From assembly GCA_022614805.1 (NCBI GenBank), contig JAKEHY010000024.1, positions 1-64,000 of the forward strand: a stretch of DNA of 64,000 nt, read 5' to 3'. The position numbers and the translations under genes are program-made. The notes under the pieces are model-generated. The model had not been told where the DNA came from, ran no database searches, and saw only the letters and a list, made by a program, of their open reading frames with translations. Source of the DNA: Candidatus Zixiibacteriota bacterium. GTDB taxonomy: Bacteria > Zixibacteria > MSB-5A5 > DSPP01. Shown here piece by piece: positions 15,213-19,154 of this stretch (within the stretch, counting starts at the first letter, position 1; every line of letters starts with the position of its first letter).

Positions 15213-16553
15213 TCAGGCAATCGTTTTAGCCTCCAAAAGCTCGTTCCAGCGGGTGGTGCAGCGCGGGGAACGGCGGCTCGATTTCATCCGCCAGCTTTGC
15301 AGCAGGCCGGCGGCGGCAAAACGCAGGGCGCCGGAGCCAAGCCGGGCGTTTACTTCGTCCAGTGCCTGCATCAGTTTTCCAGCGCTCCCGCGGTTTTTGC
15401 CGTCAAAAATGTCGGTTTGCACTTCTTCCGTAGGAACCAACCCGGAAAACACAACCCCCGCTTTTTTGAACCGGCCGTCCGCAAAAAAGATTTTTTCGGC
15501 TTCCCGCAGGGCATACCGTATCAGCTCCGGCGTGCTGTCGGTGGCCACCGGCAACTCGACGGTCGAGGAATGCGTTCGGGCCTGTTCGCTGTGGGGGCGG
15601 GTTATGCAAAAGACCGTCAGATGCTTTGCGGAAAGCCGGTCTTCGCGCAACGTTTCGGCCGCCTGGCTGGTGAATTCCGCCACCGCCTCCTTCAGTTCAT
15701 TCAGTTTTTCGACGGCCCGGCCGAAGGAGCGGGAGCAGAGGACACTTTTGCGGGGGGAGCGAACCATTTCCAGAGGCAGACAGGAGATGCCGCGCAGTTC
15801 AAGGAGAATGCGCTGCCCGACTATCCCCATCCGCTTCAAAATCCATTGGTCATCCGCTTGCCGAAGCTTGTGGGCGGTCTCTATCCCCCAGCTTTTCAGC
15901 CGCCTTTCGCCGCTGGGGCCGATGCCCCAGATTTCTCCCACCTCTATTTGGGCCAGCCGTTCCTCCGGGTCGGGAAGGGCCGACCAATCCATCACCCCTT
16001 TCAGTTCGGGTCGCTTTTTGGCCTGTTTATTGGCCAGCTTGGCCAAAGTTTTGGTGGGGGCGATGCCAATCGATATCGGAATGCCGGTCCACTTTTTGAC
16101 CGTGGCGACGATTTGGCGGGCGTAGTCGGAAAGGCCGGCCCGCTCAAAGCCGGAAAGGTTCAAAAAGACTTCGTCAATCGAATAGATTTCCCGTTCCGGC
16201 GTGAATTGCGCCAGCGTATGGATGACCCGCCGGGACATATCGCCGTAAAGGGTAAAATTGGCGGAGTAGACCCGGACGTTCGCTTGTTCAATCAAATCCC
16301 GCACCTCAAAAAACGGGACGGCCATTTTGATGCCCAGCGCTTTGGCCTCGTTGGAGCGGGAGATGATGCAGCCGTCGTTGTTGGAAAGGACAACGACCGG
16401 CACTCCCTCCAGGTTGGGATTAAAAACCCGCTCGCAGGAGACGTAGAAGTTGTTGCAGTCAACCAGGGCGAAGATGGTTTTGTTTGAAGCCACATCCGAA
16501 ACCGGCTGCCCGCCACAGGCCGGTTTTTCCCGGTCACAAAGTATGGATGACAT
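15213..16553 (-). CDS. umuC: Y-family translesion DNA polymerase, UmuC type
   Basis: 446-residue polymerase V catalytic subunit that copies past DNA lesions. The palm carries the metal-binding residues in ALVDCNNFYVSCE and YSIDEVFL; the little finger follows, and the end SGALRFAAAGLLQSW...TTRWNELL matches UmuC closely. A beta-clamp motif QTDIF sits where E. coli has QLNLF. All catalytic features look intact. The N-terminus has about 25 extra residues compared with E. coli UmuC and overlaps umuD by 20 bases; a GTG near residue 21 is an alternative start. Co-transcribed with umuD and a radical SAM gene. Confidence 0.95.
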   Translation of the reverse strand: MSSILCDREKPACGGQPVSDVASNKTIFALVDCNNFYVSCERVFNPNLEGVPVVVLSNNDGCIISRSNEAKALGIKMAVPFFEVRDLIEQANVRVYSANFTLYGDMSRRVIHTLAQFTPEREIYSIDEVFLNLSGFERAGLSDYARQIVATVKKWTGIPISIGIAPTKTLAKLANKQAKKRPELKGVMDWSALPDPEERLAQIEVGEIWGIGPSGERRLKSWGIETAHKLRQADDQWILKRMGIVGQRILLELRGISCLPLEMVRSPRKSVLCSRSFGRAVEKLNELKEAVAEFTSQAAETLREDRLSAKHLTVFCITRPHSEQARTHSSTVELPVATDSTPELIRYALREAEKIFFADGRFKKAGVVFSGLVPTEEVQTDIFDGKNRGSAGKLMQALDEVNARLGSGALRFAAAGLLQSWRMKSSRRSPRCTTRWNELLEAKTIA

Positions 16554-16950
16554 AGGTTACCACGCCCCAGATTTCTATGCTCTCCGGTTTGCCTGACGGG
16601 CCGTTCTGCGAAAGAAGGGAGGGAGTCCTTTTTTTCAGCCGGTCAAAGTAGCCGACGACAAACTCCCCTTCCACCACGGCGATGACCACCCGGCCGGGGG
16701 CGGGCTCGAGCGAGCGGTCAACAATGAGCAGGTCGCCGTGGTGGATGCCGGCTTCCAACAGGGCATCCCCTTTGGCCCACAGGAAAAAAGTGGCGGCCGG
16801 GTGTTTTACCAGATGGGCGTTCAGGTTCAAAACCTTTTCGGCAAACGGCTCGGCGGGGGAGGGAAAGCCGACCGCGGCCGGAGTCTGTTCGGAGGCGTCG
16901 GCGCCGGCCCGGACGGGAGGCTGGTTGAACATTGGAATGTAGGGCGCCAT
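16534..16950 (-). CDS. umuD: UmuD homologue lacking cleavage site and catalytic dyad
   Basis: 138 residues aligning along UmuD: VGFPSPAEPF, the core KHPAATFF, HHGDLLIVDRS and EIWGVVTYV. E. coli UmuD needs Cys24-Gly25 as the cleavage site, Ser60 as nucleophile and Lys97 as base. Here the positions read Val27-Gly28, Ala63 (KGDALLEAG instead of GDSMIDGG; codon at 16762-16764) and Gly100 (GEFVVGYF instead of GEFTVKKL; codon at 16651-16653). So self-cleavage should be impossible while the fold and probably the dimer/UmuC interface remain. The frame is uninterrupted, so this looks like selected loss rather than decay. It sits one base downstream of the radical SAM stop. Confidence 0.9.
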   Translation of the reverse strand: MAPYIPMFNQPPVRAGADASEQTPAAVGFPSPAEPFAEKVLNLNAHLVKHPAATFFLWAKGDALLEAGIHHGDLLIVDRSLEPAPGRVVIAVVEGEFVVGYFDRLKKRTPSLLSQNGPSGKPESIEIWGVVTYVIHTL

Positions 16951-16951
16951 T

Positions 16952-18253
16952 TTAGCGAAAAGCCCCCGGAGAAACGGCCCCGGCGATGGGGTAACGGGAA
17001 ATCAAAGAAAGCTGCTCTCCCGGTTTGCGCTGGCGAAAATAGGTCTCCCGCCTTTCTTCCCGCGTCTGGCCGTAAAAGATGCCGCCTATGGTTACGAATT
17101 CCTTGGTCTGACGTACTCGCACCCCCAGTTTGGCTAAATCTTCGGGCTTGAAAATCGTCCCCTCCCGGCGGGCGGTTAAAATCCGCCGGGCGGAGACCGG
17201 GCCGACGCCGGGGACGGTCAGAAGCTGTTCATACGAGGCGGTTTTGATTTCGATGGGAAAGAACTCCGGGTGTAAAATCGCCCGGTGGAGCTTGGGGTCC
17301 AACTCCAAAGACAAATTGCCGTCTTTTTCGAGCGGGATTTCGTTCACGGAAAGCTTGTAGATTCGCAACAAGTGCTCTGCCTGATAGAGCCGGTAGCCGC
17401 GCGTGAAAGGGGTGGGTGCCAGATTCTCAAACGGCGTGTCGGACATCGGCGCAAAAGTGGAAAAATGGGCGTGGTGCAAAAAACCGTCCCCCTCCAATTG
17501 GGAGACGAGGGAGAGGATTTCTTTATCCCTCTCCCTCCCCGGGCCGACCATAAACTGGGTGGTCACGCCGGCGGGGACCAGCTTTTTTCCTTCCAGTTTT
17601 CCGGCCTTCCAGAGTTCCCCTGCCTTTTGAATGGAGGGGAGAATGACTTTGGAAAGCGACTTTTCCGGCGCGATTTCGGAAAGGGCGGCGTCCGAAGGGG
17701 CTTCGCAGTTTAAGGAGATGCGCGAGGCCAGCCGGGCGGCCTGGACAATCTGCTCCGGCTCGGCCCCGGGGAGGATTTTTAAATGAATGTAGCCGCTGAA
17801 GCGGTAGCGCTTGCGCAAAATTTCCAACGTGGCCAAAAGCTTGTCCATCATCGAAACGGGTGAACCGGGGATGCCGGAGGTCAAAAACAGTCCGTCGGTG
17901 TATCCCTTCTTATGGGCGGCGTAAAAAACGGAGGCCAGTTCTTCCGGCTGAAAGATGGTCCGGCGCAACTTGCGGCCGCAACGGGTGGCGCAATAGCGGC
18001 ATTTCAAGCTGCAGGCGTTGGTCTGCATCACCCGCATCAGGTTAAAAGTTCGCCCGTGCGCCCCCGCCAATTGCATAATTCCGGGCAGGGCGGCTTTCTT
18101 GGCCGTTTTTGGCTCGACCCCCGTGAGCCCATTTTGGACCTCTTGGGTTGCCTGGCGGATGGGGATTGTCTGCCTCGGACGGCCCTCCGCATCCGAAGGG
18201 TTTATGGTATCGCCAAGGATATTAAGCTTATCAAGAAGACCTAATCTGCGCAT
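16952..18253 (-). CDS. radical SAM protein, putative DNA modification/repair (rSAM_link_UDG type)
   Basis: 433 residues. The 4Fe-4S cluster motif CSLKCRYC (Cys81, Cys85, Cys88) is followed by another Cys (ATRCGRK), as in the radical SAM family usually found next to uracil-DNA-glycosylase-like genes. The barrel includes TSGIPGSPVSMMDKLL and YIHLKILPGAEPEQ; the C-terminus has a helix-hairpin-helix (LLTVPGVGPVSARRIL, about 350-365), a DNA-binding element. No glycosylase partner is here; the gene heads an operon with umuD and umuC instead. The reaction is unknown; a role in processing damaged bases or DNA is inferred from the HhH and the context. Confidence 0.88.
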   Translation of the reverse strand: MRRLGLLDKLNILGDTINPSDAEGRPRQTIPIRQATQEVQNGLTGVEPKTAKKAALPGIMQLAGAHGRTFNLMRVMQTNACSLKCRYCATRCGRKLRRTIFQPEELASVFYAAHKKGYTDGLFLTSGIPGSPVSMMDKLLATLEILRKRYRFSGYIHLKILPGAEPEQIVQAARLASRISLNCEAPSDAALSEIAPEKSLSKVILPSIQKAGELWKAGKLEGKKLVPAGVTTQFMVGPGRERDKEILSLVSQLEGDGFLHHAHFSTFAPMSDTPFENLAPTPFTRGYRLYQAEHLLRIYKLSVNEIPLEKDGNLSLELDPKLHRAILHPEFFPIEIKTASYEQLLTVPGVGPVSARRILTARREGTIFKPEDLAKLGVRVRQTKEFVTIGGIFYGQTREERRETYFRQRKPGEQLSLISRYPIAGAVSPGAFR

Positions 18254-18276: not shown

Positions 18277-18400
18277 TTTTATCATATTATTCACACTCAT
18301 ATAATACTATTTTATCATATTATACGTTTATGTAGTATAAAAGTCAAGTATTTTTTTAGAATTTTTTATTAGCTATTGCTTTTTTATATACGTATAATAT
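18277..18400. promoter_or_regulatory. operator region between the mutasome operon and its S24 repressor
   Basis: AT-rich stretch with ordered repeats. TTTTATCATATTAT occurs twice (18277-18290 and 18310-18323), starts 33 bases apart, about three helical turns. ATATTATACGT (18317-18327) recurs inverted as ACGTATAATAT (18390-18400). TTATAC-N9-GTATAA (18320-18340) and TATACGTATA (18387-18396) are palindromes. Such dyads fit a dimeric XRE/S24 repressor controlling both divergent units. The exact -35/-10 pairs are hard to separate from the repeats. Confidence 0.6.
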
Positions 18401-18476: not shown

Positions 18477-19154
18477 ATGGAGATAGGTGAAAGAATCAAA
18501 GCGCTACGGACGGCCAAGGGGCTGACGCTTTATCAGCTGGCCCGGCGGACCGGTCTGCAGTACACCGCCTTGAAAAAAATCGAAGAAGGGCAAACCGACC
18601 CGCGGGCGGATACGGTGGTGAAAATCGCCAGGGGAATTGGGGTGGAACCCTCCCGATTTTTCACGGATGATTCGGCCGTGCGGCCGCCGGTGGTTTTGAA
18701 CATCGTCCCGCCGGAGCGGGGGGCGCGCAGCTTCCAGCCGAAGTTTTTGGCTACCCTGCCCCTTTTTGCGGACGCCGCTTCGCTCGGAGGTGGCCGCGAA
18801 ATCAACGAGCTGGATATCGAGTCATTTTTGGTGGTGCCCAAAGACCAGCTCCCCAACGAGGAGAACTGCTATTGCATCAAGGTGGTCGGCGATTCGATGA
18901 CGCCGGTTTTTTCCTCCGGCGATATTGTGGCCATTGATTTTTCCCAGAAGGACCCGGCCCTCTTGGAAGGGGCCTATGTCGCCTGCCGGCTGGGGGAGGC
19001 CGAAGTGACGGTCAAACAGCTAAAAAACAAGCCGAACCACTTCCACTTGAAAGCGGTCAACCCGGATTGGGAAGACGCCAACGGCCCGCTTTTGGCGCCG
19101 AAAAAAGACGGCGTCATCCTCGGCAAAGTGGTGTGGCAGTGGAGGAAGTTTTAA
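18477..19154 (+). CDS. XRE-family HTH transcriptional repressor with S24 (LexA-like) peptidase domain
   Basis: 225 residues: an XRE helix-turn-helix (about 4-60, YQLARRTGLQYTALKKIEEG) and a C-terminal S24 autopeptidase fold. Unlike the UmuD opposite, both catalytic residues are kept: Ser140 in VVGDSMTPVF and Lys180 in VTVKQL. No plain Ala-Gly or Cys-Gly cleavage site stands out in the linker (a SLGGG sequence is the nearest). The ATG at 18477 is chosen because AGAGGTGA lies seven or so bases upstream; a GTG at 18468 overlaps that site. Divergent to the mutasome operon across a repeat-rich operator region, so it most likely represses both and is released by RecA-type damage signalling. Confidence 0.9.
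   Translation: MEIGERIKALRTAKGLTLYQLARRTGLQYTALKKIEEGQTDPRADTVVKIARGIGVEPSRFFTDDSAVRPPVVLNIVPPERGARSFQPKFLATLPLFADAASLGGGREINELDIESFLVVPKDQLPNEENCYCIKVVGDSMTPVFSSGDIVAIDFSQKDPALLEGAYVACRLGEAEVTVKQLKNKPNHFHLKAVNPDWEDANGPLLAPKKDGVILGKVVWQWRKF

What the first reader, a model, noticed from the sequence alone, without database searches (positions are those of the whole stretch)
16534..16950. UmuD homologue has lost cleavage-site Cys, catalytic Ser and catalytic Lys
Seen: the alignment to E. coli UmuD is colinear, and the three positions needed for self-cleavage (Cys24, Ser60, Lys97) are Val27, Ala63 and Gly100. The frame is intact and the rest of the fold is kept. Known: E. coli UmuD needs RecA-stimulated cleavage to activate UmuC. 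Inference: here UmuD cannot be cleaved, so it is either constitutively active or a structural cofactor, and control is moved elsewhere.
Basis: partly seen in the sequence, partly recalled or inferred. Interest (0 to 1): 0.8.

Follow-up and report, generated by a model that had tools for sequence, protein, structure and literature searches.

The report
Natural UmuD that cannot cut itself
This bacterium carries a DNA-damage polymerase subunit (UmuD) that has lost the built-in protease normally needed to switch it on, and the same loss is seen in several other lineages, so mutation-prone DNA copying is probably controlled another way there.

Summary
On the minus strand, 16534-16950 encodes an intact 138-aa UmuD next to umuC, with Val27, Ala63 and Gly100 where E. 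coli has Cys24, Ser60 and Lys97. It is not decay or an assembly error: the sister species keeps V-G and Ala (Gln at the Lys site) at 76% identity, with dN/dS about 0.22. Among 159 distinct UmuDs, 131 keep Ser and Lys. The 27 true exceptions lie in the window's phylum or in one cyanobacteria-side order, with differing substitutions. The losses hit the cleavage cleft and the arm-docking motif; the GFPSPA segment (which enters UmuC) and the WGVV tail are kept. I read it as a UmuD'-like Pol V subunit freed from RecA-stimulated self-cleavage; this is inferred, with no biochemistry. Both genomes of the genus lack a detectable LexA and carry a genus-specific XRE-S24 regulator divergent from the rSAM-umuD-umuC operon. 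An operator-like 15-16-mer occurs exactly twice per genome, at these divergent promoters, so control has probably moved to a private transcriptional switch. I found no published description in open-access papers.

The parts
16534..16950 (-). umuD homologue without the Ser-Lys dyad (138 aa)
16870..16872 (-). Val27 codon GTC at the position of E. coli Cys24 (cleavage site P1)
16762..16764 (-). Ala63 codon GCC at the position of E. coli Ser60
16651..16653 (-). Gly100 codon GGC at the position of E. coli Lys97 (Gln in the sister species)
15213..16553 (-). umuC, 446 aa, overlaps umuD by 20 bp; Y-family acidic residues (LVDCN, YSIDE) and C-terminal DUF4113 present
16952..18253 (-). radical SAM protein of TIGR03916 type, first gene of the operon, stop one base before the umuD start
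18477..19154 (+). XRE-S24 regulator with Ser (GDSM) and Lys (VKQL) kept but Leu-Gly at the probable cleavage site; divergent from the operon; found only in this genus within the phylum sample
18319..18347 (-). sigma-70-like promoter of the operon (TTGACT, 17 nt, TATAAT)
18317..18331 (.). operator-like site 1, ATATTATACGTTTAT, over the operon -10
18386..18400 (.). operator-like site 2, same 15-mer inverted, in the xre promoter region; the only other copy in the genome at up to one mismatch

Best explanation
The protein is the UmuD subunit of a Pol V-type polymerase that has become a pseudoprotease. It cannot cut off its own N-terminal arm. It most likely works directly as the UmuD'-like partner of UmuC: the arm no longer docks in the cleft, the GFPSPA segment still enters UmuC, and the dimer and tail segments are kept. 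In place of RecA-stimulated cleavage of UmuD, activity is probably set by transcription of the rSAM-umuD-umuC operon, through the divergent XRE-S24 regulator acting on two private operators. Shown: the residue losses, their conservation and recurrence, the operon order, no detectable LexA in this genus, and the paired sites. Inferred: the UmuD'-like activity, and XRE-S24 as the repressor of the operon.
For: Three residues lost. Sister species has the same loss at 76% identity, dN/dS 0.22, equal to umuC at 0.21. Positions lost in the dyad-less proteins of this phylum include 24, 60, 61, 63, 95, 97, 99, 111, 114 and 117; positions kept include 25-30, 40-41, 50-52, 70, 75-76, 88, 92 and 128-131. 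A P-L/L-F docking motif lies at the E. coli L17/F18 register in 96 of 124 Ser+Lys UmuDs and 1 of 26 others. Arms are about 10 residues in most of the cyanobacteria-side losses. In E. coli the arm variant T14A L17A F18A is considered a UmuD' mimic and the 18-residue arm deletion partly mimics UmuD' without cleavage (PMC5342242). In the Pol V model the UmuD' N-terminus inserts into UmuC (PMC12926913). Only two S24 proteins, no LexA, in either genome of the genus; RecA present. Paired 15- and 16-bp sites, one in each divergent promoter region, in each of two genomes, absent elsewhere in those genomes and in 0 of 300 local shuffles.
Against: No biochemistry. In the window the arm is still 27 residues long, and full-length E. 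coli UmuD S60A strongly reduces mutagenesis (PMC3901139, PMC5342242), so activity does not follow from loss of cleavage. XRE-S24 has Leu, not Ala/Cys/Thr/Ser, at its probable P1, so RecA-stimulated cleavage of that regulator is doubtful. The operator-like sequences differ between the two species and partly coincide with -10 elements. Another protease could trim the arm.
Confidence: 0.6

Rival explanations
1. The uncleavable UmuD is a permanent brake or fidelity factor: it holds UmuC and other replication partners in the non-mutagenic, checkpoint-like state that full-length E. coli UmuD imposes.
For: E. coli UmuD S60A greatly lowers UV mutagenesis and sensitises cells (PMC3901139; PMC5342242). 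The window arm keeps 27 residues and a P-M-F motif.
Against: The docking register of the arm is broken (about 13 extra residues between PMF and G28). In the parallel cyanobacteria-side group the arm has shrunk to about 10 residues, which fits a UmuD'-like state better than a brake.
Confidence: 0.2
2. The arm is removed by another protease, or the dimer is cut in trans, so a UmuD' form still arises.
For: Trans cleavage of E. coli UmuD S60A by an active partner is known (PMC5342242). Another S24 dyad exists in the cell: XRE-S24 keeps Ser and Lys.
Against: The only other S24 protein in the genome is XRE-S24. Val at the cleavage site is nearly absent among Ser+Lys UmuDs. No ATG, GTG or TTG start lies near G28 to give UmuD' directly (sequence; sister).
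Confidence: 0.12
3. Plain decay of a gene no longer under selection.
For: The Lys position varies (Gly, Gln) and the C-terminal loop is variable.
Against: Frame intact in two species, in-frame indels only, dN/dS about 0.22, equal to that of umuC, and the operon is kept.
Confidence: 0.04
4. The arginine-bearing relatives (Lys97 to Arg with Ser kept) are slow but active proteases, so the recurrent-loss story is smaller than it looks.
For: I recall, without a test here, that Arg in place of the LexA Lys keeps some slow cleavage. 11 of the 27 relatives are of this Ser+Arg type.
Against: Does not apply to the window protein, which lacks both residues. The cyanobacteria-side order also contains members that have lost Ser too, and nearly all lack the arm motif.
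Confidence: 0.3

Closest known systems
E. coli UmuD / UmuD' (Pol V subunit; PDB 1UMU, 1AY9, 1I4V, 8GMT)
   Same: Family, gene order umuD-umuC, GFPSPA segment, WGVV-type tail; best sequence and fold match
   Different: No Ser-Lys dyad, Val-Gly instead of Cys-Gly, altered 98-126 segment, stretched arm
Engineered uncleavable E. coli UmuD variants (S60A; T14A L17A F18A, a UmuD' mimic; 18-residue arm deletion)
   Same: Cannot self-cleave; arm docking weakened in the latter two
   Different: Laboratory mutants; here the state is natural, conserved in a genus and seen in several lineages
Acinetobacter UmuDAb with LexA absent
   Same: A LexA-less genus in which control of umuDC rests on an S24-type protein other than LexA
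   Different: There UmuD became the cleavable repressor; here UmuD lost cleavage and a separate XRE-S24 protein sits next door
YqjX/YolD partners of Gram-positive UmuC-like polymerases
   Same: Small Pol Y subunit whose N-terminal arm is modelled to enter the polymerase (PMC12926913), with no self-cleavage step known to me
   Different: Unrelated by sequence; the present protein is a true UmuD homologue

Membership tests
UmuD (Pol V subunit) | S24-like fold with UmuD-specific profile | tested here: met
   Pfam PF00717 2.8e-16; NCBIfam PRK10276.1 111 bits, cut-off 110; fold match to UmuD'
UmuD (Pol V subunit) | operon with umuC | tested here: met
   umuC overlaps umuD by 20 bp; 1.5e-115 to the UmuC model though below its cut-off (386.5 of 431 bits)
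UmuD (Pol V subunit) | Ser-Lys dyad and A/C-G cleavage site (autoproteolysis) | tested here: not met
   Ala63, Gly100, Val27. It is therefore filed as a UmuD homologue, not as an autoproteolytic UmuD
UmuD (Pol V subunit) | binds and activates UmuC as a dimer | not testable with these tools
   conserved segments only
HumD family (UmuD'-like, phage P1) | HumD profile above its cut-off | tested here: not met
   68 bits against cut-off 120
LexA/UmuDAb-type repressor | N-terminal DNA-binding domain | tested here: not met
   27-residue arm; no HTH hit in Pfam
RecA-cleavable XRE-S24 repressor (neighbour gene) | HTH + S24 with Ser-Lys and a small P1 residue before Gly | tested here: inconclusive
   HTH_3 and Peptidase_S24 met, GDSM and VKQL present, but ASLG gives Leu at the probable P1, in both species

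The most novel reading that the evidence does not exclude
UmuD has repeatedly lost RecA-stimulated self-cleavage in bacterial evolution and become a constitutive UmuD'-like Pol V subunit, with the arm losing its docking motif or shrinking; in this genus the RecA/LexA circuit over umuDC has been replaced by a two-operator private XRE-S24 switch.
Probability: 0.45. Interest if true: 0.75.

Novelty: new variant of a known kind. Interest (0 to 1): 0.62.

Why it matters
Self-cleavage of UmuD is taught as the step that licenses Pol V. Natural UmuDs without it, kept under selection next to UmuC, give a direct way to test whether cleavage is needed for function or is only one form of timing, and which parts of UmuD serve UmuC rather than proteolysis. 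They also warn against annotating every UmuD as an 'autoproteolytic subunit' (the NCBIfam model names this one so).

Tried and rejected
Plus-strand reading of the interval has a stop and no sense. Viral contigs with the single protein: no relative; with an alignment of the uncleavable set: 67 loci, whose UmuDs aligned keep Ser and Lys apart from one fragment, so the uncleavable form is not obviously phage-borne. Genomes of the phylum of G133 (planctomycete side): 30 loci fetched, the UmuDs among them with Ser and Lys. Loss of UmuD cleavage as a simple consequence of LexA loss: rejected as general, since G051 and G035 carry both a LexA and a UmuD without a full dyad. A first, narrower motif test (hydrophobic-Phe only) gave 41 of 124 against 0 of 26 and was replaced by the P-L/L-F test; the motif was chosen after seeing the sequences and the rows are related, so its Fisher p (9e-13) is descriptive only. 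Literature searches for UmuD pseudoproteases or natural uncleavable UmuD found none, in open-access papers only.

Full report
What was checked. The interval 16534-16950 was translated on both strands. The plus strand holds a stop and no sensible protein; the minus strand gives an intact 138-aa protein matching Peptidase_S24 and the Pol V autoproteolytic subunit model at 111 bits, cut-off 110. Codons GTC, GCC and GGC encode Val27, Ala63 and Gly100, aligned to E. coli Cys24, Ser60 and Lys97.

Context. The genes run rSAM (TIGR03916 type), umuD, umuC on the minus strand. umuD starts one base after the rSAM stop, and umuC overlaps umuD by 20 bp. UmuC keeps the Y-family acidic residues visible in its sequence and a DUF4113 tail. 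An XRE-S24 regulator (18477-19154, plus strand) is divergent from the operon. The genome (G000, 2.56 Mb, 93% complete) has only these two Peptidase_S24 proteins, so no LexA was found, while RecA is present. The sister species (G001, 99% complete) likewise has only two. The next genome of the order, G002, has a LexA-like protein.

Not decay. In G001 the protein is 75.5% identical and again V-G, Ala and a non-Lys residue (Gln). Nei-Gojobori dN/dS is 0.22 for umuD and 0.21 for umuC (two sequences only, dS about 0.7). Indels are in frame.

Survey. From genome and viral collections 159 distinct UmuD sequences were aligned. 131 have Ser and Lys. Of the remaining 28, one is a fragment (L195b). The other 27 lie in the window's phylum (9: window, G001, G051, G113, G094, G095, G035, and Ser+Arg with V-G in G092 and G065) or in one cyanobacteria-side order reached through L056 (18). 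Substitutions at Ser are Ala, Gly, Asp, His; at Lys they are Arg, Gly, Gln, His and Ala. G035 keeps a Ser but has lost Lys and the GFPSP segment. V-G occurs in five of these 27 and in only one other row, a distant viral one. On a tree built without the arm and without columns 60 and 97, the Ser+Lys state needs 5 changes (bootstrap 5-6), but well-supported branches alone force only 1. One clade for all 27 is marginally rejected (p-AU 0.043, with the group named after the sequences were seen). Repeated loss is therefore likely, not proven; the mixed substitutions and the two distant groups support it.

What was lost and kept. Comparing seven dyad-less proteins of this phylum with the intact set, the lost positions cluster at the cleft: 24, 60, 61, 63, 95, 97, 99, 111, 114, 117. 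The kept ones are the GFPSPA segment, 40-41, 50-52, 70, 75-76, 88, 92 and the WGVV tail. The published Pol V model places the UmuD' N-terminus inside UmuC (PMC12926913), so retention of GFPSPA fits service to UmuC rather than cleavage; that link is my inference. A P-L/L-F motif at the E. coli L17/F18 register is present in 96 of 124 intact rows and 1 of 26 others. In the cyanobacteria-side group many arms are only 9-10 residues long. In the window the arm is 27 residues, but its P-M-F is about 13 residues further from the cleavage position than in E. coli. E. coli work shows that arm release can make an uncleavable UmuD behave like UmuD' (T14A L17A F18A; 18-residue deletion, partly), whereas full-length S60A greatly reduces mutagenesis (PMC5342242, PMC3901139).

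Control. Within the phylum sample, XRE-S24 was found only in G000 and G001 (94% identical). A 15-mer (ATATTATACGTTTAT) occurs at 18317-18331 and inverted at 18386-18400, one in each divergent promoter region, and nowhere else in the genome at up to one mismatch. The sister species has its own pair of 16-mers, again exactly two genome-wide. Neither pair arises in 300 local dinucleotide shuffles. The sites overlap -10 elements, and the two species' sequences differ. This suggests a private repressor of xre and the umuDC operon. Whether RecA controls it is open: its dyad is present but Leu precedes Gly at the likely cleavage site.

Structure. AlphaFold2 gives a confident core with unconfident arm and 108-120; Foldseek's best PDB matches are UmuD' and UmuD. 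This confirms the family, not the function.

Verdict. A natural pseudoprotease UmuD, most likely a constitutive UmuD'-like subunit of UmuC, with transcriptional control by a neighbouring regulator. New variant of a known kind. The strongest rival is a permanent brake on UmuC.

Noticed in passing
window 16952-18253: Radical SAM protein of the TIGR03916 type leads the umuDC operon; the TIGR03915 protein that I recall as its usual partner was not found in the genome.
   Followed up: partly
window 18477-19154: Genus-specific XRE-S24 regulator with intact dyad but Leu-Gly at the likely cleavage site, in both species.
   Followed up: partly
G000 and G001 genomes: No LexA found in either genome of the genus although RecA is present in G000.
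   Followed up: partly
L130 1929-2297 (similar in L142, L144, L146, L148, L149, L152): Viral contigs carry, divergent from an intact umuDC pair, a second small UmuD-like protein that seems to lack the Ser and Lys.
   Followed up: partly
L126 1498-1842: A UmuD that may start directly at M-A-F-P-S-P, that is, encoded in the UmuD' form, with Ser and Lys kept.
   Followed up: no
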